The translations under genes and the position numbers were made by a program. Shown one piece after another: positions 8,193-24,526 of a DNA stretch of 64,000 bases. Below the pieces are notes generated by a model. It worked only from the letters and a program-made list of their open reading frames with translations, had not been told where the DNA came from and made no database searches. This DNA is from Verrucomicrobiota bacterium (GTDB lineage Bacteria; Verrucomicrobiota; Verrucomicrobiia; Limisphaerales; PALSA-1396). The stretch is taken from positions 186,001 to 250,000 of the forward strand of contig JACQFP010000022.1 of the NCBI GenBank assembly GCA_016200005.1, read 5' to 3'. How positions within the stretch are numbered: the first letter of the stretch is position 1; each line of letters starts with the position of its first letter.

Positions 8193-9531
8193 TCTGGCGG
8201 GAGCGCCCTTCACGTCATTCCGGGTGGGCTTCGGCTTGTTTCAGTACACCGACGGCACGATGCCAGCGGCCGAGGCCATATTCGACAACCTTGAACTTTG
8301 GACATCGCTTCTGCCAGTGACGCGCTACGTGGACGTGAACAGCACCAACCCCACGCCGCCCTACACCAACTGGCTCACTGCGGCGACGAACATCCAGGAC
8401 GCCGTGGACGCGGCGCTGGCAGGCGACGAGATCGTGGTGACCAACGGCACCTACGCCACTGGTGGGCGCGCGGTGGGAACGAACTTGCTGGTGAATCGCG
8501 TGGCAGTGGACAAGCCGCTCACGGTGTGGAGCGTCAACGGCCCGGAGTTGACGGTAATCAATGGTGACAGCACGGCTCGGTGCGTGTATCTGAGTGACGG
8601 CGCCAGCCTGTCCGGGTTCACCTTGACCCAGGGAGTGGCGGATAACGGCGGTGGGGTGCGGTGCGCATCCACAAACGCTTTTCTCGCGCACTTTGTGATT
8701 GCAGGCAACTCGGCTACCTTCGGCGGCGGGGCGTATGGGGGCACGCTTTACAATTGCACGCTGATGGACAACTCCGCCACCGACGGTGGCGGAGCGAAAG
8801 CCGCGACACTCAACAACTGCACCGTGGTGGACAACGTGGCCTGGGACTCAGGTGGTGGAGTCGCGAGTTCGACCTTGGCGAACTCCATCGTGGCCTACAA
8901 CGCCGCCTGGACCGACCCTAATTACGCGGCCTCGACGTTGGATTACTGCTGCACCTCGCCGTTGCCCACCGGCGGGCGGGGCAACATCACACTCCCGCCG
9001 CAGTTTGTGCATTACCCCAACGGCAACCTGCGTCTGCAATCCAACTCCGCCTGCATCAACGCTGGCCACAACGCCTACGTTTCGAGCACTACGGACCTGG
9101 ACGGCCTCCCGCGCATTGTCAGCGGCACGGTGGACATCGGCGCCTACGAGTTCCAAGGGCCCAGCTCGGTGATTTCCTACGCCTGGCTCCAGCGCTACGG
9201 CCTGCCCACCGACGGCTCGGCGGATGCCACCGACCCGGACGCCGACGGCCACACCAGCTGGCAGGAGTGGCGTTGCCAGACCGATCCCACCAACCCGCTC
9301 TCGGTGTTGCGCCTGCTCTCGGCGTCGCCCGCCGGCACGAACGTGACCGTGACTTGGCAGAGCGTGGCCGGGGTGAACTATTTCCTGGAGCGCAGCACGA
9401 ATCTGTCCGCGACCCCGCCCTTCACCCTGCTGGCCCCGAATCTCCCCGGCCAACCCGGCACGATGACTTACACGGACACAAACGCCACGTCTTTGTCCCC
9501 GCTGTTCTACCGCGTGGGAGTTGGGCCGTAA
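8119..9531 (+). CDS. right-handed beta-helix (choice-of-anchor Q type) protein, C-terminal part of a frameshifted gene
   Basis: This continues the gene at 7119 in another frame; residues before about NWQDVG are probably not translated this way. It contains the typical opening of surface beta-helix proteins (RYVDVNSTNPTPPYTNW, then NIQDAVDAALAGDEIVVTNG), pectate-lyase-like coils (LYNCTLMDNSA, LNNCTVVDN), and the closing motif DLDGLPRIVSGTVDIGAYEF. An Asp-rich segment (DATDPDADGHTSWQEW) of dockerin or thrombospondin-3 type and a final beta domain follow. It is probably exported to the cell surface. Whether the pair makes a full protein depends on the frameshift being real. Confidence 0.82.
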   Translation: MTRRSMPPGFKPLTGMNWQDVGPADLAGAPFTSFRVGFGLFQYTDGTMPAAEAIFDNLELWTSLLPVTRYVDVNSTNPTPPYTNWLTAATNIQDAVDAALAGDEIVVTNGTYATGGRAVGTNLLVNRVAVDKPLTVWSVNGPELTVINGDSTARCVYLSDGASLSGFTLTQGVADNGGGVRCASTNAFLAHFVIAGNSATFGGGAYGGTLYNCTLMDNSATDGGGAKAATLNNCTVVDNVAWDSGGGVASSTLANSIVAYNAAWTDPNYAASTLDYCCTSPLPTGGRGNITLPPQFVHYPNGNLRLQSNSACINAGHNAYVSSTTDLDGLPRIVSGTVDIGAYEFQGPSSVISYAWLQRYGLPTDGSADATDPDADGHTSWQEWRCQTDPTNPLSVLRLLSASPAGTNVTVTWQSVAGVNYFLERSTNLSATPPFTLLAPNLPGQPGTMTYTDTNATSLSPLFYRVGVGP

Positions 9532-15928: not shown

Positions 15929-17224
15929 ATGGCAGCAATCAAACTTTCTCCCGCACGTCGCACCTTAACCAAAGCACCCGCCAAAAACGGCAATGGCGCG
16001 AGCAAACACGACTTCGCCGTCCGCGACCTCTCGCTCGCCGAGTGGGGACGCAAAACCATTGAGGTTTGCCAGCACGAGATGCCCGGCCTCATGTCCATCC
16101 GCAAAAAGTATGGCGTGAGCAAGCCGCTCAAGGGCGTCCGCGTCACCGGCTCGTTGCACATGACCATCGAGACGGCGATCCTCATCGAGACGCTTATTGA
16201 ACTCGGCGCGTCGGTGCGTTGGGCGAGCTGCAACATCTTCTCCACGCAAGATCACGCCGCCGCCGCTGTTGCCAAGGCCGGTATTCCTGTCTTCGCGCAC
16301 AAAGGCGAATCGCTCGAAGAGTATTGGGACTTCACCCTCGCCGCCCTCACGCATCCGGGCAACAAAGGACCGCAACTCATCGTGGACGATGGCGGCGACG
16401 CCACGCTCCTAATCCACAAAGGCTACGAACTCGAAAACGGCGACACCTGGGTCAACACGCCGAGCGACAACCACGAAGTCGCCGTCATCAAGGCGCTGTT
16501 GAAGAAGGTCGCAAAGGAACGCCCCGGTTTCTGGCACGAAGTCGTGAAGGACTGGAAAGGTGTTTCCGAAGAAACGACCACCGGCGTGCATCGCCTTTAC
16601 CAGATGTTGGAGCAGGGCAAACTTCTCGTGCCCGCCATCAACGTCAACGACTCCGTCACCAAATCCAAGTTCGACAACCTCTACGGCTGCCGCGAATCGC
16701 TCGCCGACGGCATCAAGCGCGCCACCGACGTGATGATCGCCGGCAAAGTCGCGGTCGTCGCGGGCTACGGCGACGTCGGCAAGGGCTGCGCCCATTCGCT
16801 CCGCGGATTCGGCGCGCGCGTGATCGTCACCGAGATTGACCCCATCAACGCGCTGCAAGCCGCGATGGAAGGTTTCGAAGTCACCACGCTCGAAGACACG
16901 CTCGGCATCGGCGACATCTACGTGACGACCACCGGCAATTGCGACGTCATCACACTCGACCACATCCTCAAGATGAAGGACCAGGCCATCGTTTGTAACA
17001 TCGGCCACTTCGACAACGAGATTCAGGTGGACAAGCTCAACACGTTGAAAGGCGTGAAGAACAAAATCGGTGTCTATCGTCTGCCCAAGAAACTGGACGA
17101 AGAAGTCGCGCGCCTGCACCTGGATCGCATCGGCGTGAAGCTGACCAAGCTCACGAAGAAACAAGCCGACTACCTCGGCGTGCCGCCCGAAGGGCCTTAC
17201 AAGCCGGAGCACTATCGGTATTGA
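15929..17224 (+). CDS. ahcY: S-adenosylhomocysteine hydrolase with internal deletion
   Basis: 431 residues. The family splits S-adenosylhomocysteine into adenosine and homocysteine. Clear motifs are [52 protein letters not shown], the NAD-binding [15 protein letters not shown] (about residue 275) and the C-terminal lysine and tyrosine tail KPEHYRY. After [18 protein letters not shown] and GVKNK, however, the protein jumps directly to [12 protein letters not shown]. The roughly 60 residues found here in other family members (from INIKPQVD through the GHPSFVMSNSFTNQ motif) are absent. That segment contacts adenosine and NAD, so this copy may be inactive. Total length looks normal only because bacterial enzymes carry an extra insertion earlier. 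A fragment with the missing SNSFTNQ region lies at 23036. Confidence 0.9.
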
Positions 17225-17251
17225 GCGCTAGTCAAATCTCAAAACACGAAA

Positions 17252-17283
17252 GGCGAACGGGAAACCGTTCGCCATTTTCATTT
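17252..17283. terminator. ahcY terminator hairpin (copy 1)
   Basis: GGCGAACGG-GAAA-CCGTTCGCC, followed by ATTTTCATTT. On the other strand the hairpin is followed by TTTCGTGTTTT, so it may also end the convergent gene whose stop is at 17282. Similar hairpins follow both ahcY fragments. Confidence 0.88.
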
Positions 17284-18922
17284 AAGAATTGTCCTTCAAC
17301 ACATTCACCTTCAGCCATTCGATGAACTCCACAGCACCCGCAAAGATTTTCATCGAAGCGTCCACAACTGGCAACCCCTTCAGTCCGGCACGTTTCAAAA
17401 CGACTTCGTATTCGCTGCTCTTCCGATGAGCACTTCCTTTTGACCGGAGTTCCTGTAGCACGCGAAGCGGTCTGATTCGCAGGTCAGCATCACCGTATCC
17501 GGCCTCAATAAAGAACTGTTGCAAGCGATTCAGGCCACCGGGATTCGGGGCTTGCGCTCGAAGTGTCCCCTTGATTTTGTCTTCGTTCAGGGAATCGTTC
17601 AGCAGCTTCGCCAGAAGACCGTTTTGTTGATCGAACTCAGACTGACTTTCGTCAAGGCAAACGTGGACTTGAGCAAAAACATAACGATCCTCCTCCTCGG
17701 GTTCTCGCCACAACGGCCAACCGTATGCTTTTTGCCAAAGGTTGTTCACCATTGGATACAAATGTTTCAATTTCAAATCGGGCATCGTCGGATTTGCAAA
17801 CCACGCCTTGATGTTGCGGCTGTAGAAGGTTTTGCTTACACCGCCGTCCGGAGCGACGTTGAAGGAACGCCAATGCAAGCGTTCAACTCCTGGAAGGTCT
17901 AGTCCGAGGTCTTTGAGGAAAACGATGACATACTTGGGATGATCATTGTCGATTCTCAAACCCCAAAGACCTCCACATCGGAGATATCCATCTTCGACAG
18001 AAAACTTGGTCGGCTCAGCGAAATACCGTGCCAAGACCCCTCGTCGGAAAAATACAGGTTGCAAGGCATGCCGCGCGTCTTTGTCAGCAGCCTTCGGATC
18101 AGAGGTTTGCGTGATGGCCGCACCTTGTTTGTTATATCCGACGATGAACGAAGGATAAGCTGAATGGTCCTCCTCGTAAGGGTCACGATATTCAACGGGA
18201 CCGGGGCACAAAATGAGGGCCTTTCCAATTACTCGCGAGATGCACTTGCATTGATCGTCATGATGCCGGTCTTCATTTGCACTGAGATGCCAATGAAAAG
18301 TCGCGCCACGCCGTTCACTTCCAACTGACTTTAGACCGAGTTCGCTGAGGGAATACTGACACCAGTATGCACCGTCCCATTGCATAGCGAGATGCATCTG
18401 CTTTGCACGGAGAAAATCGACCAGAAAACGTAAATGAACCTCAACGCGTCCGTTGGCAACTCGAACCACCTCGTGTTCGACCCCATGAATATCAGAATGG
18501 AGAAAAACTCCACGTGCGGTGTCTTGGTAAAGATTGTGAAACAACCTAAACTCTTCAGCGATTTCAATCGTCGGCGATCTCAACCCCCAGAAATGACGTG
18601 CGTGAACCAAGGGTTGTGCGCCAGTTTCATTACCATCAGGCAGGTACGAGATTTCGCGCACTTTTTCTCCTGTTCGCCAATGCTCAACGCATTGTACCTG
18701 CGGATTAAAGTCAGACGCACGATAATCCCAACTCAACTCTTTGAGGAATCGCTCGTCACCAATCAGCGGCAACAGAAAGCAAAAAGTGTGAAAACCATTT
18801 TTGACATCTTCGCTCGAATAGACGCAGACAAATGCGGACGCCGTTGGGTTCTCAATAACCCTAATCTGCCGTAGCTGGAGTAATCGTTCGATTTCCTGTT
18901 GTTTAGTGGCCTCGTCCATCAA
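17282..18922 (-). CDS. uncharacterised 546-residue island protein
   Basis: I do not recognise this protein. It is soluble, with no signal peptide, transmembrane segment or nucleotide-binding motif. It is rich in aromatic residues and has many Trp and His (MQWDGAYWCQYSLSELG, FHWHLSANEDRHHDDQ). The last 110 residues (LLAKLLNDSLNEDKIKG ... GLNRLQQFFIEAGYGD ... VVLKRAGLKGLPVVDA) look like a separate helical domain. It is the first gene inside the island that begins after the ahcY terminator and is divergent from the DNA methyltransferase at 19031 (108 bases apart). The company suggests a defence or DNA-processing role, but nothing in the sequence proves it. Either of two adjacent ATGs may start it. 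Confidence 0.75.
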   Translation of the reverse strand: MMDEATKQQEIERLLQLRQIRVIENPTASAFVCVYSSEDVKNGFHTFCFLLPLIGDERFLKELSWDYRASDFNPQVQCVEHWRTGEKVREISYLPDGNETGAQPLVHARHFWGLRSPTIEIAEEFRLFHNLYQDTARGVFLHSDIHGVEHEVVRVANGRVEVHLRFLVDFLRAKQMHLAMQWDGAYWCQYSLSELGLKSVGSERRGATFHWHLSANEDRHHDDQCKCISRVIGKALILCPGPVEYRDPYEEDHSAYPSFIVGYNKQGAAITQTSDPKAADKDARHALQPVFFRRGVLARYFAEPTKFSVEDGYLRCGGLWGLRIDNDHPKYVIVFLKDLGLDLPGVERLHWRSFNVAPDGGVSKTFYSRNIKAWFANPTMPDLKLKHLYPMVNNLWQKAYGWPLWREPEEEDRYVFAQVHVCLDESQSEFDQQNGLLAKLLNDSLNEDKIKGTLRAQAPNPGGLNRLQQFFIEAGYGDADLRIRPLRVLQELRSKGSAHRKSSEYEVVLKRAGLKGLPVVDASMKIFAGAVEFIEWLKVNVLKDNS

Positions 18923-19030
18923 GACTTAAGTTCGGGCAGTCGGTGCAGAACTGCAAGGGGATTGCATGTCGCTTGCCCCACAATCCAGATTCAGCTTGGC
19001 CGAATTCGCCCTGCGTTGTAGCGTTGCGTC

Positions 19031-20002
19031 ATGCGCAAAGCAAAGAAAGCCGCGTATCCGCTGACCCGACATCATTCCGTTCACATTCTCCGCGAGGAAG
19101 CGCAATCGGCTGGCATCCGCTCAACGACGATTGGCAATTACCTGGACGCGATCATCTGCGGCGATGCGGAGTCCACGTTGCGCGCGTTGCCGCACGAATC
19201 GGTCAACGCGATTGTCACGAGTCCGCCTTACTACCAGCAGCGGGATTACGGCGCGGGGTTGCAAATTGGAAACGAGCCTGCGCCGGAAGTTTATGTGCAG
19301 AAGCTGACGGGCGTTTTCCGCGAATGTTTCCGCGTGCTGGCGAAGGACGGCACGTTGTGGCTGAACCTCGGGGACAAATACAAGGACGGGCGGTTGCTGG
19401 GAATGCCGTGGCGCGTTGTGTTTGCGATGGAAAGCATCGGCTGGATTCTTCGGTCGGACATCATCTGGCATAAAACCAACGCCATGCCCGCTTCGATCAA
19501 GAACCGTCCGACGACGGATCACGAATACATTTTCATGTTTTCCAAGTCGCCGGATTATTTCTACAACGCCGACGCGATTCGCGAGCCGCACGTCACGTTC
19601 ACGGAGAAAAGCCGGATGATGGGCGGACGCGGGCATTTCGGAAAACGCGGCGGAACGCCGGAGCAAGGCAAGAACGGCGGCAATCCCAATCTCCACAACG
19701 CGCGCTGGGATCAGGCGTTTCATCCGCTGGGCAGAAACAAGCGGACCGTCTGGCAGATTCCCTTGTCGAAATTCCCCGAGGCGCATTTTGCCGTGTTCCC
19801 GGAAAAGCTGGTTGAGACTTGCATCCTGGCTGCGACGAAGCCAAACGATTTGGTGCTCGACCCGTTCGCCGGAAGTGGAACGGTGGCAATCGTTGCGCAA
19901 CAGTTCGGGCGGCACTTCGTCGGAATTGATTGCAGCGAGGACTACTGCGCCCTCGCCAAGAAGCGGCTCGAAAAAAGCCAACTGGCCTTTGGTCTGGTCT
20001 GA
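19031..20002 (+). CDS. DNA methyltransferase, beta class (N4-cytosine or N6-adenine)
   Basis: 323 residues. The catalytic motif IV TSPPYY (about residue 63) comes before the SAM-binding motif LDPFAGSGT (about 276), the order of the beta class. SPPY is more usual for N4-cytosine enzymes, but m6A cannot be excluded. The target-recognition region lies between them (KNRPTTDHEYIFMFSKSP, then a Gly-rich stretch). It would methylate a specific DNA sequence. Its stop is one base from the stop of the convergent gene at 20004, a possible endonuclease, so the two may be a restriction-modification pair. The start (MRKAKKAAYPLTRHH) has no clear ribosome binding site. Confidence 0.9.
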   Translation: MRKAKKAAYPLTRHHSVHILREEAQSAGIRSTTIGNYLDAIICGDAESTLRALPHESVNAIVTSPPYYQQRDYGAGLQIGNEPAPEVYVQKLTGVFRECFRVLAKDGTLWLNLGDKYKDGRLLGMPWRVVFAMESIGWILRSDIIWHKTNAMPASIKNRPTTDHEYIFMFSKSPDYFYNADAIREPHVTFTEKSRMMGGRGHFGKRGGTPEQGKNGGNPNLHNARWDQAFHPLGRNKRTVWQIPLSKFPEAHFAVFPEKLVETCILAATKPNDLVLDPFAGSGTVAIVAQQFGRHFVGIDCSEDYCALAKKRLEKSQLAFGLV

Positions 20003-20003
20003 A

Positions 20004-20900
20004 TCAAGCGAACCGTTTGAAAAACGGAATCAGCTTTTCCACTTCCTTTTCGAGCATCGGTTCGATGGCTTCGATCTGATTGGGATTGGCGCGAAGATAA
20101 ATCCAATACTCGCACTTGAGGGTCTTCAGGTCTCCACCCCACGACTCGGCAATTATGACAGGCACGCACTCGTAGCCATTCTCATGCGCCACGGAAATCG
20201 CCTTGAAAATATCCCGCGTGAACAGATTGGCGTGACCTCCGCCCATTGTTTCGCGCGTCTTGACCGGCACAAGAATCGTCCGCTTCTTGCCAATGATTTG
20301 CACGTCGAACGTTTCCTCGTTGATTCGCTTTTCGCCGACGCCGATTTCAAGCCGAACGGAACGTCTCTCGAAGACTTTTCGGAACGCCCCGCGAACCAAC
20401 TCCTCGAATTTCGTCCCTTTGAGCGCCCGGCGACTTCCCTCAAGCCGCGCCAGCATCACTTCGGACAACGCCGGCCACGACCAACTCTCTGCCTGCGGAA
20501 ATAACGGCCCGACGAACTTGCGTAACTGGTTCAAGAGGTTTGCGCGCTTTTCATCCAAGGATTCGCCCTGAACTGAAGTCAGGAGAGGTTGAAGCCGTTG
20601 AGCCGGCGCGTCCCGCAACATCCAGGCGAGGAAATACCACTTTGCCGTCGCGTCTTTGTAAGGTCTGGCCAAACCATCAAACAATTGAACTTCACTCTGC
20701 CTAGCCAGGTAGTCTTTGATGACCTTCGTCGCCTTCGCACCCGACGGCTCATTGATGAAGTCGTGTACGTCTTGATAACCGTGCTGCTTCAAATACACGC
20801 AGAAGTCCTCGTAGAATTTTTGATTCTGCCGGACGATGGCCACCAAATCTTGCAGCCGCAGGTTTTCAATTATGAAACCCATTTTCGGGATTATCTCCAT
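20004..20900 (-). CDS. possible restriction endonuclease paired with the convergent methyltransferase
   Basis: 298 residues, no signal peptide. A segment resembling a PD-(D/E)xK core is present: D199 in ETFDVQIIG, then K214 in ILVPVK, followed by THE acidic TRE. The usual Glu before the Lys is Pro here, so the assignment is tentative. The N-terminal half is helical (ENLRLQDLVAIVRQNQKFYED). Position next to a DNA methyltransferase, tail to tail and one base apart, is the main support. The start could also be Met7 (MGFIIENLRL). Convergent methyltransferase and endonuclease genes are common in type II systems. It might instead be another nuclease-fold defence protein. Confidence 0.6.
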   Translation of the reverse strand: MEIIPKMGFIIENLRLQDLVAIVRQNQKFYEDFCVYLKQHGYQDVHDFINEPSGAKATKVIKDYLARQSEVQLFDGLARPYKDATAKWYFLAWMLRDAPAQRLQPLLTSVQGESLDEKRANLLNQLRKFVGPLFPQAESWSWPALSEVMLARLEGSRRALKGTKFEELVRGAFRKVFERRSVRLEIGVGEKRINEETFDVQIIGKKRTILVPVKTRETMGGGHANLFTRDIFKAISVAHENGYECVPVIIAESWGGDLKTLKCEYWIYLRANPNQIEAIEPMLEKEVEKLIPFFKRFA

Positions 20901-21129
20901 CGCACCAGCAAAGTCGAGTTTTGAGAATTTGATTTAGCCGATTCACCAAGACGGCTGGCGCACGTTGAAGAATGACCGCACGACACGTCGGTTGCGTTGA
21001 CAGGAGTTTTATTTGAACGAACCGGCGGTTGGGATTGAATTCATTTTGCCGAACGAGCGGAAAGTTTTTTCCAAAGTTGGCATCATCGAAATTGCGATGA
21101 GCCGACAACACACCGTCGGAGAATTTATG

Positions 21130-22257
21130 TCATGTCGAGGACCGTCGTTTGTAGGAAACCGGCTTGGACGAATGTCTCTTTCGCGCAACTGGAGCACCGG
21201 CTGTTTCCGCCAACACCAACACGCCTTGCGACGGCGTTGCTGGTTTGTGGACGTTCCCGTTTCGTGGCGACGGTTGCGCAACTTGGAAAACGTCGCGGCG
21301 GAGGTCGGCGGTTTTGCCGTGGAGAATCGCGGCGTGGGCGGTTTTGAGTTCGGCGTCGCTGACGGCTTCGGCGAAGAAGCGGAAGGAGGACGCAGCGAGG
21401 TAATCGAGGCGTTCTTCAAAGGCGAGCCATTTGCGGCCTTCGCACTCGGCCACGTGACCGGTGGTGTTCGAGCCGGCAAAGATGTCCAGCACGAGGTCGC
21501 CCGGTTCGGTGAGGAAGCGGATGAAGAACTCCGGCAGTTTCGCCGGGAAGCGGGCGGGATGGCCTTTCACGCCGATGGTTTTGCAGCCGCGCAGGTAGCT
21601 GCCGTTGGATTCCGAATTCGAGATTTGCAGGAGGTTGGGCGGAATCGCGCCACCGTTGTCTTTGGCGAAGGCTTTGCCGATGTCGTGGCCGGACGGGCGT
21701 TTCTTCGGCGTGTAAAAGCCTTCCGGGTCTTCGAGCAGTTTCTTCATCCGGTCGCTGTATTCGGCGAGCACCTTGGTCACGTTGGCTTTGGGCCAGCGGG
21801 TTTTGCCGAACCACCAGACGGTGTTGACCGCGTCCTTCGCGCGGAGCTTCCGTTTGTTGACCCATTCAATGGGGCTGGGCAGCTTGGACGGGTTGAACCA
21901 GTAGAAATCTTCGGCGAGGTGGAAGCCGAGTTCGTCGCAGAAATGAATCGGGACGCGGAAGTTGTAGAGGCTGCGCGTGGGCGAGCCGGGTTCGTAAGCG
22001 CCGCCGAGGTCGAGAACGAAGCTGCCGTCGTCTTTGAGCTTGCGATGAACGAACCGGGCGAATTGCGCGAGCCAGGCCACATACTCGGCCTGAGCTTTGT
22101 TGCCGTATTCCTTTTCGCGCTGAAGGGCGAAGGGCGGACTGGTGAGAACGAGGTTGACGCTGGAATCGGGCAGCGCGGCGAGCAGGTCAAGCGAATCGCC
22201 GCGATACGCCGCACCCCAGTTGGTGAGGTATGCGGGCGCATGTTTTTCCAACAACAT
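21130..22257 (-). CDS. PvuII-like N4-cytosine DNA methyltransferase
   Basis: 375 residues. From memory it resembles M.PvuII over most of its length: LTSPPFALQREKEYGN, LAEDFYWFNPSKLPSPIEWV, KDAVNTVWWFGKT, RPSGHDIGKAFAKDNGG, PPNLLQISNSESNG, HPARFPAKLPEFFIRFLTEP and the SAM motif LDIFAGSNTTG. M.PvuII makes N4-methylcytosine in CAGCTG, so this enzyme probably protects the same or a similar site. About 70 extra residues follow the catalytic domain. It is divergent from the controller gene at 22304, with operator boxes between, the same layout as the PvuII system. It should remain functional even though the nuclease gene is broken. Confidence 0.92.
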   Translation of the reverse strand: MLLEKHAPAYLTNWGAAYRGDSLDLLAALPDSSVNLVLTSPPFALQREKEYGNKAQAEYVAWLAQFARFVHRKLKDDGSFVLDLGGAYEPGSPTRSLYNFRVPIHFCDELGFHLAEDFYWFNPSKLPSPIEWVNKRKLRAKDAVNTVWWFGKTRWPKANVTKVLAEYSDRMKKLLEDPEGFYTPKKRPSGHDIGKAFAKDNGGAIPPNLLQISNSESNGSYLRGCKTIGVKGHPARFPAKLPEFFIRFLTEPGDLVLDIFAGSNTTGHVAECEGRKWLAFEERLDYLAASSFRFFAEAVSDAELKTAHAAILHGKTADLRRDVFQVAQPSPRNGNVHKPATPSQGVLVLAETAGAPVARKRHSSKPVSYKRRSST

Positions 22258-22262
22258 AAAGC

Positions 22263-22288
22263 TACTTTAAGTCTGTAGATGTAAAGTC
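22263..22288. promoter_or_regulatory. C-box operators of the PvuII-like system
   Basis: Two boxes related to the controller consensus GACTNNNAGTC: TACTTTAAGTC (22263-22273, one mismatch) and GATGTAAAGTC (22278-22288, two mismatches), separated by TGTA. This is the tandem arrangement with a four-base spacer seen in C-protein operators. They lie between the divergent methylase and controller genes. Expected behaviour: one bound dimer activates, and two repress, the controller and nuclease genes. Confidence 0.65.
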
Positions 22289-22303
22289 GTCAATTTCGAT
22301 AAC

Positions 22304-22540
22304 GTGCCGCAGATGAAAGCCAAGCCATCCGCTCGACGTATCTTCGCCGAAAATCTGCGCAAGGCAAGACTGGCGAAAGGACTTTCGCAGGAAGATTTGG
22401 CGGAGTTGGCAAACCTCCATCGCACTTACGTCGGCTCGGTCGAACGGGCGGAACGAAATGTTTCAATAGACAACATGGAGCGTCTGGCCGCTGCCGTGGG
22501 TATTTCACTCTCTTCGCTGGTGCAGGAGGGCAAGCGATGA
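22304..22540 (+). CDS. controller (C) protein, XRE-type regulator of PvuII-like system
   Basis: 78 residues from GTG at 22304, or 75 from ATG at 22313; the latter is closer to C.PvuII in layout. A single helix-turn-helix ([20 protein letters not shown], then ERAERN) fills the protein, as in controllers of restriction-modification systems. It would bind the C-boxes 16-41 bases upstream of its start and delay nuclease expression until the DNA is methylated. Its TGA overlaps the ATG of the nuclease gene (ATGA), so the two are translationally coupled. Confidence 0.9.
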
Positions 22541-23024
22541 AGCCGCATCCCGACACGGTGGAACTCGAACGGCTGTTTCCGTACATCCGCGAGTATCAGG
22601 CGCTCGCTTCGAAGCACGGCATCGGCGACATCTTCCAGGACAACGGTGGAAAGCTCTGCAACTCTTGTTGGTCACAGGACTCAAATGTCTCGGCAGTCGA
22701 GAGGGCAATGATGCGCTTGATGAGCAGGGCAAGGAATACGAACTCAAGTCGGTGAACGTCCTGTTGACGCAAAGTTTTTCGACCCACCATCACATGAACC
22801 CTGTCATTCTTGCCAAGTATCGACAGGTGGATTGGCTGCTGGCCATTTACGAAGGCATAGAACTGCAAAAGATTTATCGAATGAAGCCGGCGACGTTAGA
22901 GCCGTACTTCTCAAATTGGGAAAAGAAATGGCACGAATCGGGAGGCAAAGACATCAACAATCCGAAAATTCCCGTGAAGTTTGTAGTCCAACACGGAGAA
23001 ATGATTTATCAGAAAACCGGGTGA
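22537..23024 (+). pseudogene. PvuII-like restriction endonuclease, frameshifted
   Basis: The first frame gives an N-terminus like R.PvuII ([25 protein letters not shown]). At about 22656 a base seems missing (CTCTG where CTCCTG would keep the frame), and the protein continues in the next frame as [20 protein letters not shown] ... EYELKS ... [16 protein letters not shown] ... [20 protein letters not shown]. The catalytic residues known from PvuII are all present across the two frames: D of GND, E and K of YELK, and the HH pair, plus D of FQD in the first part. The gene is thus a recent break or a sequence error. Its stop lies 11 bases before the ahcY fragment at 23036. Confidence 0.9.
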
Positions 23025-23035
23025 TTGATTTCTGG

Positions 23036-23263
23036 GTGAGCAACAGCTTCACCAACCAATGCCTCGCGCAACTGGACCTCTGGGCCAACCGCGCCACCAA
23101 CAAGGCCGGCGTCTATCGTCTGCCCAAAAAACTGGACGAAGAAGTCGCCCGCCTGCACCTCGACCGCATCGGTGTGAAGCTGACCAAGCTCACGAAGAAA
23201 CAAGCCGATTACCTCGGCGTGCCCGCGGAAGGACCTTACAAGCCGGAGCATTACCGGTATTGA
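23036..23263 (+). pseudogene. 3' fragment of ahcY (copy 2)
   Basis: 75 codons that match the C-terminus of SAH hydrolase, starting exactly in the conserved motif ([12 protein letters not shown]) and running to [12 protein letters not shown]-type tail and stop. The last 156 bases (23108-23263) correspond to 17069-17224 of the main gene, with only silent or near-silent changes plus one Pro to Ala. It includes [12 protein letters not shown], a region that the main copy lacks, so it is not a simple duplicate of that copy. A matching terminator follows. Confidence 0.92.
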
Positions 23264-23307
23264 AAAATGTGTCGCACTCTAACGAGTGCTGCTGCCGAAA
23301 CTCGAGA

Positions 23308-23336
23308 GGCGAACGGGCAACCGTTCGCCTTTTTTC
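23308..23336 (+). terminator. terminator hairpin after ahcY fragment 2
   Basis: GGCGAACGG-GCAA-CCGTTCGCC followed by seven T. The stem is identical to that of the hairpin after the main ahcY. Confidence 0.9.
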
Positions 23337-23394
23337 TAAGCGCAAAGCAGAGGTTGAGGCGCGAGGACGTAAAGATGCCCGGCGAGGCAGGTGC

Positions 23395-24192
23395 TTATTG
23401 ACTCAGCACTTCCACCGCATCGCCCGCGCGCACGATGCCCTCGACCAGTACAGCAGCGTACACGCCGGCCATGCCTTGGTGGGCCTGCGCGACACGCTTC
23501 AAAACGGCTGGATTCGATTCGCCCGTCTCGGGATCCAACGTAATCATCGCGCAACGCGCGTCGCGCTGGAGAAGGGAAACCACCGCTCGGGAGCCGATCC
23601 GCAGCGAACGGCCAATGTAACCGTCCTCCGCAAAACCGCCGGGCGCGTTCAAGTCCAGGTAGATGTTCGCCCGGAAACGCCGCGCATCCACGGTCGCGCC
23701 TATTTCATCACCAAGCTGCCGCGCCGTTTGCAGCGAGAGGAGCGATACGGGCCGGCAATCGGTGATCGCCCGGTCGGATCGCATCAGCGTCAACTCCGGC
23801 GCGCCGGGGAGGCCATCACGTATCGCGTGGAGCAGCGCCGGGTCGTCAATTGCCAGCCTCCGACCGGTTGGCAATTCGACGTCCACCATGAAATCCGTCG
23901 CGTCCGTGGGCGCGGGAGTCAGGCCCACTCCGGGAGCGAGATTTTCCGCTTCGGCCAGATTCGCGGGCTGTGCGGCTTTTTCGGGATGGCGGAAGCGCGG
24001 ACTGCAGGCCAGAAGTTTGCGTTGCTCGCGGGCCGTAAGATAGGGGAATCCTTTGGGAGCAATCGAACTGCGAATCGCAAAGACGCGGTCGCCATGAATT
24101 CCGGCGAAACCGAGGAACGCTTCGCGCAACGACTCGCCGCGCATGCTCTTGACGGGGTAACGCCAAAGACTGGCCACTCTTCCGATGATGCT
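23395..24192 (-). CDS. MOSC-domain protein
   Basis: 265 residues from the ATG at 24192 (MSIIGRVASLWRYPVKSMRG); the longer frame to 24303 is not supported because it runs into the ahcY fragment 3 region. The N-terminal beta-barrel (WRYPVKSMRGESLREA, GIHGDRVFAI) and the MOSC domain (RPVSLLSLQT, DARRFRANIYLD, RCAMITLDPETGE) are clear. The conserved cysteine of MOSC proteins is the C of RCAMIT. Relatives handle sulfur on the molybdenum cofactor or reduce N-hydroxylated compounds (YcbX, mARC). A sulfite-oxidase-like molybdoenzyme lies 11 kb away. The gene sits between ahcY fragments 2 and 3, reversed, so it may have arrived with the island. Confidence 0.88.
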   Translation of the reverse strand, partial: SIIGRVASLWRYPVKSMRGESLREAFLGFAGIHGDRVFAIRSSIAPKGFPYLTAREQRKLLACSPRFRHPEKAAQPANLAEAENLAPGVGLTPAPTDATDFMVDVELPTGRRLAIDDPALLHAIRDGLPGAPELTLMRSDRAITDCRPVSLLSLQTARQLGDEIGATVDARRFRANIYLDLNAPGGFAEDGYIGRSLRIGSRAVVSLLQRDARCAMITLDPETGESNPAVLKRVAQAHQGMAGVYAAVLVEGIVRAGDAVEVLSQ

Positions 24193-24331
24193 CATGGTGA
24201 TGAAGGGTTTGGGGTTGGTTCTCGTTGCGGCGATTGAAGCGACCATACGCGGTTCGCGAAGCTTGTGACAAGCGCGGATTCGAGTGATCACGCACGACCA
24301 CATTGTCAGGATGATGAGCCAGGATTACGTT

Positions 24332-24445
24332 TGCCTGCGCTTCGCACGCAGCGGCGCCAAGTTGACCAAGCTCACCAAGAAACAAGCCGATTACCTCGGC
24401 GTGCCGCCCGAAGGGCCATGCAAGCCGGAGCACTATCGCTACTGA
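24332..24445 (+). pseudogene. 3' fragment of ahcY (copy 3)
   Basis: Clear similarity from [20 protein letters not shown] to CKPEHYRY and stop; weaker similarity begins about 27 bases earlier. This is the shortest of the three ahcY 3' ends. The unusual PCKPEH (others PYKPEH) marks it as drifting. Confidence 0.88.
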
Positions 24446-24470
24446 GCGGATTCAAATTTAAAACACCAAA

Positions 24471-24498
24471 GGCGAATGGGAAAATCGTTCGCCTTTTT
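24471..24498 (+). terminator. terminator hairpin after ahcY fragment 3
   Basis: GGCGAA and TTCGCC arms around a partly decayed stem, followed by TTTTTATTT. It is the degenerate version of the hairpins at 17252 and 23308. Confidence 0.75.
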
Positions 24499-24526
24499 AT
24501 TTGAAGCAATGCACGATTCATCAGCC

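What the first reader, a model, noticed from the sequence alone, without database searches (positions are those of the whole stretch)
21130..23024. A PvuII-like restriction-modification set with a single-base break in the nuclease
The methylase, the controller and the nuclease have the gene order and ATGA overlap of the PvuII system. The nuclease carries a one-base loss near 22656 but keeps every known catalytic residue across its two frames. Loss of the nuclease with retention of the methylase is a common route to a solitary methyltransferase; here it appears caught early.
Basis: partly seen in the sequence, partly recalled or inferred. Interest (0 to 1): 0.6.

Follow-up and report, generated by a model that had tools for sequence, protein, structure and literature searches.

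The report
PvuII-like restriction system, nuclease gene broken
A bacterial DNA-defence set closely related to the laboratory restriction enzyme PvuII keeps its protective methylase and its switch gene, but its DNA-cutting gene is split by a one-base frame change; it is an ordinary kind of decay, found in an unusual island beside repeated ends of a housekeeping gene.

Summary
Window 21130-23024 encodes a PvuII-type M-C-R set: intact methylase, intact controller, and a nuclease lying in two frames (PF09225 positions 2-36, then 41-155). Three genomes of the same order carry intact sets with methylases 86-89% identical. Of 86 distinct other loci, none has a frame break; one has an in-frame stop. 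The nuclease has gathered more derived residues than its sister's (8 against 0; methylase 7 against 17), with none at 57 invariant positions. That fits a real, young loss, but an assembly error cannot be excluded without reads.

The set lies in a 5.8-kb island that also holds a second, apparently intact restriction system. The island sits between direct repeats of the 3' end of ahcY plus terminator; a third copy lies 1.2 kb further on. The only near-full ahcY lacks about 56 residues. Repeated ahcY 3' ends on one contig were seen in 8 of 320 genomes of the order, some beside candidate defence genes; no integrase was recognised. This resembles the known insertion of restriction systems with long target duplication. 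The family is known; the ahcY site was not found in the papers searched.

The parts
21130..22257 (-). M: N4-cytosine methylase of the PvuII type, intact, 375 aa
   Evidence: PF01555 5e-40; 1boo 7.4e-152; 86-89% identical to methylases of G091, G083, G064
22258..22312 (.). region between M and C with the expected controller-binding boxes (C-box-like repeats, not tested)
   Evidence: sequence conserved in the four closest sets
22313..22540 (+). C: controller, helix-turn-helix, 75 aa from the likelier start (ORF from 22304)
   Evidence: PF01381 6e-15; PADLOC Control_protein 3.3e-26
22537..22755 (+). R, first frame: N-terminal part of the PvuII nuclease, then out-of-frame tail
   Evidence: PF09225 positions 2-36; R.PvuII alignment
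22665..23024 (+). R, second frame: rest of the nuclease with the active-site residues
   Evidence: PF09225 positions 41-155, 4.6e-49; R.PvuII alignment
15929..17224 (+). ahcY, only near-full copy in the genome, with an in-frame internal deletion
   Evidence: no match for residues 374-429 of 6uk3
17060..17278 (+). left repeat: ahcY 3' end plus terminator (copy 1)
17282..18922 (-). 546-aa protein of unknown kind
   Evidence: no Pfam, NCBIfam or PADLOC match at the thresholds used; relatives on plasmids named hypothetical protein
19031..20002 (+). methylase of a second restriction system
   Evidence: PF01555 1e-54; PADLOC MTase_II 6e-97
20004..20900 (-). probable nuclease of the second system, convergent with its methylase
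   Evidence: PADLOC REase_II 2.6e-29; 49.5% to a protein beside a methylase gene on a Salmonella plasmid
20938..21093 (.). 156-bp segment also found directly upstream of an ahcY 3' fragment in G128
23031..23334 (+). middle repeat: ahcY 3' fragment plus terminator (copy 2)
   Evidence: 90% to copy 1 over 165 nt
23395..24303 (-). MOSC-domain gene between copies 2 and 3
   Evidence: PF03473, PF03476
24333..24510 (+). third ahcY 3' fragment plus terminator (copy 3)

Best explanation
A horizontally moved PvuII-type Type II restriction-modification set whose nuclease gene has lately been broken. In such a set the methylase is made first and methylates CAGCTG; the controller builds up, binds the region shared with the methylase gene and switches on itself and the nuclease; the nuclease then cuts unmethylated DNA. 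Here a one-base frame change after about residue 39 stops full-length nuclease, so the cell would keep methylase and controller without cutting: a very young solitary methylase. Shown: homology of the three genes, order, overlap, two-frame nuclease, intact relatives. Inferred: target, loss of cutting, recent date. The set lies in an island at the 3' end of ahcY that had already gathered other genes between copies of that 3' end, and it seems to have landed in front of an older ahcY fragment.
For: Families and structures. Intact sets in G091, G083, G064. R is one alignment segment in 89 of 90 loci tabulated, the window alone needing two; 3 of the 89 duplicate others. Low dN/dS in both halves; derived residues R 8 against 0, M 7 against 17 in window and G091, Fisher p 0.0006. 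No other unexplained frame switch in 42 coding segments, about 50 kb. DNA similarity among sets is confined to M-C-R. The 156-bp segment.
Against: No reads; the frame-switch scan misses short breaks and did not flag R itself. The excess of changes rests on few residues and on a sister relation with modest support (84 in the R tree, 52 beside G000 in the M tree). CAGCTG avoidance does not separate genomes with and without the set. Methylase and controller function untested.
Confidence: 0.7

Rival explanations
1. The break is an assembly or consensus error and the restriction system is whole and active.
For: A single-base difference in a draft assembly of 87 contigs; every catalytic residue is kept; no columns invariant elsewhere are changed.
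Against: No homopolymer at the place; no other unexplained frame switch detected in about 50 kb of coding sequence; extra derived residues in R.
Confidence: 0.22
2. The two frames are used: ribosomal frameshifting, or a restart at 22665, gives some active or regulatory nuclease product.
For: An open frame with a possible TTG start at 22665; both halves still look constrained.
Against: No repeat or homopolymer at the place; 86 distinct relatives encode R without a frame break; a restart would omit the first 40 residues or so, including the residue recalled as D34.
Confidence: 0.05
3. For the setting only: a site-specific recombinase, now lost or acting from elsewhere, puts elements into the 3' end of ahcY.
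For: The copies share the end of the gene and mostly a terminator while their starts vary; two kinds of tail stand side by side in G015 and in the window.
Against: No integrase or transposase among the ORFs scanned in the window island and the other arrays (not every ORF was scanned); tails also vary among single-copy genomes; repeats of 165 nt are long for a recombinase core (recalled).
Confidence: 0.25

Closest known systems
PvuII restriction-modification system (Proteus plasmid NC_002632; structures 1boo, 1eyu, 3ksk)
   Same: All three genes, divergent M and C-R, C-R overlap, R 63.5% identical in its second half
   Different: Nuclease in two frames; chromosomal contig; placed in an ahcY repeat island
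Intact PvuII-type sets of G091, G083 and G064 in the same order
   Same: Methylases 86-89%, second nuclease half 76-88% identical, conserved M-C region
   Different: Nuclease unbroken; other neighbours; in G064 C and R are fused
C-REase fusions such as NsoJS138I (PMC3850674, passages seen)
   Same: Same nuclease family; a relative at 50-69% identity has PvuII specificity
   Different: C and R are separate in the window
Insertion of restriction systems with long target duplication (PMC3031569, passages seen; Nobusato 2000 seen only as a citation)
   Same: Restriction genes between long direct repeats, no mobility gene recognised
   Different: The repeat is the 3' end of ahcY, in arrays with differing cargo in several genomes

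Membership tests
PvuII-type restriction-modification system | Nuclease homologous to R.PvuII along its length | tested here: met
   PF09225 positions 2-36 and 41-155 in two frames
PvuII-type restriction-modification system | Nuclease encoded by one open frame | tested here: not met
   reads not available
PvuII-type restriction-modification system | Active-site and recognition residues of R.PvuII (positions recalled) | tested here: met
   alignments
PvuII-type restriction-modification system | Methylase homologous to M.PvuII | tested here: met
   1boo 7.4e-152 over 7-320
PvuII-type restriction-modification system | Controller gene overlapping R and divergent from M | tested here: met
PvuII-type restriction-modification system | Controller boxes between M and C | tested here: inconclusive
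   region conserved in four sets; binding not tested
PvuII-type restriction-modification system | Methylation and cleavage of CAGCTG | not testable with these tools
   site avoidance inconclusive
Insertion with long target duplication | Long direct repeats of the target flanking the insert | tested here: met
   165 nt at 90% plus terminator
Insertion with long target duplication | Empty site in a close relative | tested here: inconclusive
   G128 lacks the PvuII set between the shared 156-bp segment and its ahcY fragment, but is of another family; same-genus G001 has ahcY split over two contigs
Integrase-borne genomic island | Integrase gene in the island | tested here: not met
   none among the island ORFs scanned; the 546-aa protein is unidentified

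The most novel reading that the evidence does not exclude
In this order (probably Limisphaerales) the 3' end of ahcY is a recurrent landing site used without an integrase of its own. Cargo units, among them restriction systems and other defence genes, arrive with or displace a piece of the ahcY 3' end and its terminator, so that arrays of cargo between ahcY ends build up and units can be exchanged by recombination on the repeats. The decaying PvuII set would be one passenger.
Probability: 0.35. Interest if true: 0.6.

Novelty: new member of a known kind. Interest (0 to 1): 0.4.

Why it matters
It is a clear case of a restriction system that seems to have just lost its nuclease while methylase and controller still look sound, with close intact relatives for comparison. 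The setting may matter more: if the ahcY 3' end is a general landing place for defence genes, it gives a simple way to find new defence cargo in a little-studied group, and a test of how restriction genes move without an integrase.

Tried and rejected
CAGCTG avoidance. A first comparison suggested that avoidance tracks the PvuII set. The wider one did not: observed/expected is 0.21 or less in 4 of 4 genomes with the set, but also in 4 of the 9 without it that had at least 7 expected sites (G001, G115, G227, G023; Fisher p 0.10). Absence of the set in G115 and G227 was checked afterwards; with only the 7 genomes checked it is 2 of 7, p 0.06. G081, G128, G015 and G138 were left out of the count for too few expected sites. 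Kept as inconclusive.

Repeats beside PvuII sets in general. Of 87 loci (three duplicates dropped) 74 had 400 nt or more on both sides; 4 of 74 had a match between their flanks (2500 nt each side), one of them a 67-nt repeat at 97% in G083; shuffled pairs gave 1 of 71, 0 of 72 and 1 of 73. The window's own repeats lie too far out to be seen there. Long repeats beside the set are not the rule. The fragment beside the set of G091 that I take for the end of clpB is not a duplicate (other match 41%).

Defence enrichment of ahcY cargo. PADLOC at 1e-40 hit 2 of 8 ORFs of 250 aa or more in other arrays and 0 of 40 random ORFs drawn from 465, p 0.025; with 8 ORFs of G128 it is 2 of 16, p 0.08. With the window's own five it is 4 of 21, p 0.011, but the window was the starting point. 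One of the two hits lies just beyond the fragment, not between copies. Suggestive only.

Hotspot control. The last 75 aa of ahcY match two or more times in 17 of 320 genomes and three or more in 5; a 75-aa stretch of metK 9 and 0 of 320; p 0.16 and 0.06. Some second matches are genes split between contigs or paralogues.

Two tail types as attachment sites: weakened, since tails vary among single-copy genomes. Uniqueness of the window as a broken R: not quite, since L156 (Ignavibacteria) has an in-frame stop in mid-gene. The 546-aa protein stayed unidentified.

Full report
OBSERVATION. M, 21130-22257 (-), is a PF01555 methylase that matches the solved M.PvuII (1boo) along residues 7-320 at 7.4e-152. 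C, ending at 22540, is a short helix-turn-helix protein closest to controller proteins in PADLOC. R overlaps C by ATGA at 22537-22540. R lies in two frames: 22537-22755 carries PF09225 positions 2-36 and 22665-23024 positions 41-155. Both halves align with R.PvuII structures, and residues that I recall as D34, D58, E68, K70, H83-H85 and N140-N141 are kept. The net shift is one base, in about 22654-22670, without a homopolymer of 4 or a 3-unit repeat in 22631-22690. The second half has one match in the genome.

RELATIVES. PF09225 matches in 5 of 97 related genomes, 4 of them over the curated cut-off: the window's own, G091, G083 and G064; G014 is weak. Methylases of 86-89% identity sit beside the three intact nucleases, which are 76-88% identical to the window's second half. 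In G064 C and R form one 235-aa protein, like the fusions of PMC3850674 (passages seen). A scan of GTDB genomes found 111 relatives and kept the best 80; IMG/VR gave 6. Titles of the closest records say Verrucomicrobia, Verrucomicrobia subdivision 3 or Limisphaerales, from which I infer the order. R is one alignment segment in 89 of 90 tabulated loci and two in the window; three of the 89 duplicate others, so 86 are distinct. One of them, L156 from an Ignavibacteria genome, has an in-frame stop in mid-gene. The 31 weaker relatives were not seen and may include broken ones. Eleven plasmid records carry relatives, five from Acinetobacter and one the Proteus PvuII plasmid; five phage records carry distant ones; E. 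coli genomes gave no DNA match.

HOW OLD IS THE BREAK. Between the window and G091 the nuclease halves have dN 0.058 and 0.060 with dS 0.85 and 1.57; M has dN 0.067 and dS 0.76. With G083 as outgroup, dN of the second half falls 0.047 on the window's branch and 0.013 on that of G091; for M 0.022 and 0.046 (my arithmetic). In an alignment of 12 sets chosen from those found, R of the window has 8 derived residues against 0 in G091, M 7 against 17 (Fisher p 0.0006). None of 57 columns invariant in the other 11 is changed; leaving out each other sequence in turn gives 0 to 2 changes, so this is normal for a working gene. So R seems to have slackened, but briefly: an excess dN of about 0.03, against a synonymous change of about 0.8 per branch, fills a few percent of the branch. 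This is rough, as dS is near saturation and support for the sister relation is modest. It fits 'caught early' and speaks somewhat against a pure assembly error.

IS THE ASSEMBLY RELIABLE. A codon-usage scan gave 42 coding segments, about 50 kb, and one frame switch, which is an ordinary 8-nt overlap of two genes. The scan cannot see short breaks and did not flag R itself. Reads are needed.

THE UNIT AND ITS SETTING. DNA similarity among the four closest sets covers M-C-R and stops near the stop of R. The neighbours differ. In G083 a 67-nt piece of the neighbouring aminotransferase gene is repeated across the set at 97%. In the window, R ends a few bases before a fragment of ahcY that runs to the gene's stop and terminator (23031-23334). 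The same 3' end stands at 17060-17278 (90% over 165 nt), and a third copy at 24333-24510 after a MOSC gene. The terminator, with up to 3 mismatches, occurs in the genome only at copies 1 and 2 (copy 3 has diverged further). Between copies 1 and 2 lie a 546-aa protein of unknown kind, an apparently intact second restriction system (methylase 19031-20002; probable nuclease 20004-20900, convergent as in a Salmonella plasmid pair), and the PvuII set. No integrase or transposase was recognised.

A DAMAGED HOUSEKEEPING GENE. The only near-full ahcY of the genome has no match for residues 374-429 of 6uk3; it is 431 aa long against 489 and 492 in G015 and G081. The gap is in frame and lies just before the left repeat. 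Fragment 2 still holds part of the lost stretch. If true, the genome may lack a working S-adenosylhomocysteine hydrolase. This too needs reads, since repeats are prone to misassembly.

A PARTLY EMPTY SITE. A 156-bp segment between the second system and M (20938-21093) is single in this genome. Of eight genomes searched it was found in full only in one other, G128 (89%), which also has a marginal 43-bp match elsewhere; there it stands directly upstream of an ahcY 3' fragment, and G128 has no PvuII nuclease match. So the PvuII set seems to have been put between that segment and the fragment, with loss of part of the fragment, after the ahcY array existed (inference).

A RECURRENT SITE. The last 75 aa of ahcY match in 276 of 320 genomes of the order, two or more times in 17. 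Followed up in 18 genomes, repeats on one contig occur in 8: G000, G128, G255, G225, G227, G135, G015 and G081; partial copies on contigs of their own in G089, G091, G138 and G234. G128 shows no full ahcY at all. The 3' limit is constant, the stop, mostly with a terminator after it; the 5' limit varies from about residue 316 to 463 of a 492-residue reference, contig ends aside. Cargo includes a helicase-nuclease matching PADLOC PDC-S37 in G225; HicA and UPF0150 genes between the copies, and a Schlafen-type helicase matching PDC-S41 just beyond the fragment, in G015; but also a DUF4303-WD40 protein, a hydrolase, Band-7 proteins and a TerC protein. A metK control gave 9 genomes with two matches and none with three. 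The excess for ahcY and the share of defence genes are suggestive, not firm. No held paper has 'ahcY', 'integration site' and 'genomic island' together; the 15 papers listed in a wider search do not mention adenosylhomocysteinase (listing of 507 that hold three of four terms); Limisphaerales with restriction-modification and horizontal gave 0, Verrucomicrobi with defence systems and integration hotspots 0.

WHAT IS KNOWN. PMC3031569 (passages seen) reports that restriction systems can insert with long and variable target duplications, citing Nobusato 2000, which I saw only as a citation; Furuta 2010 was not held. Homology-facilitated illegitimate recombination (PMC3240628, start of the abstract in a listing) is a plausible way to join cargo to an ahcY end. 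The C-R overlap of PvuII is studied in PMC2997769 (passages seen), and solitary methylases are discussed in PMC3874152 (passages seen).

VERDICT. A decayed member of a well-known family, with a fair case for recent loss of the nuclease, in a composite island at the ahcY 3' end that deserves its own study. It works, or worked, like PvuII; as a complete restriction system it fails one defining feature, a nuclease in one open frame.

Noticed in passing
window 15929-17224: The only near-full ahcY of the genome has an in-frame gap against residues 374-429 of 6uk3, right before the left repeat; true deletion or misassembly is open.
   Followed up: partly
window 17060-24510; L058, L059, L075-L081: Arrays of ahcY 3' ends with differing cargo between them in several genomes of the order.
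   Followed up: partly
window 19031-20900: A second, apparently intact restriction system whose nuclease has no Pfam match; relatives sit beside methylase genes on enterobacterial plasmids.
   Followed up: partly
window 17282-18922: A 546-aa protein of unknown kind in the island, with distant relatives on Pseudomonas, Rhodococcus and Streptomyces plasmids.
   Followed up: partly
L076, about 8592-8625 (G128): A hairpin-like insert of some 35 nt interrupts an ahcY fragment in G128.
   Followed up: no
L057 1444-2151 (G064): Controller and PvuII-type nuclease fused in one 235-aa protein, a further C-R fusion.
   Followed up: no
genome samples of G000, L181-L200 and window: GTCGAC is almost as strongly avoided as CAGCTG (observed/expected 0.07 and 0.06); GTCGAC is low in many genomes of the order.
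   Followed up: partly
L156: A PvuII-type nuclease of an Ignavibacteria genome has an in-frame stop in mid-gene, a second possible case of a lost nuclease.
   Followed up: no
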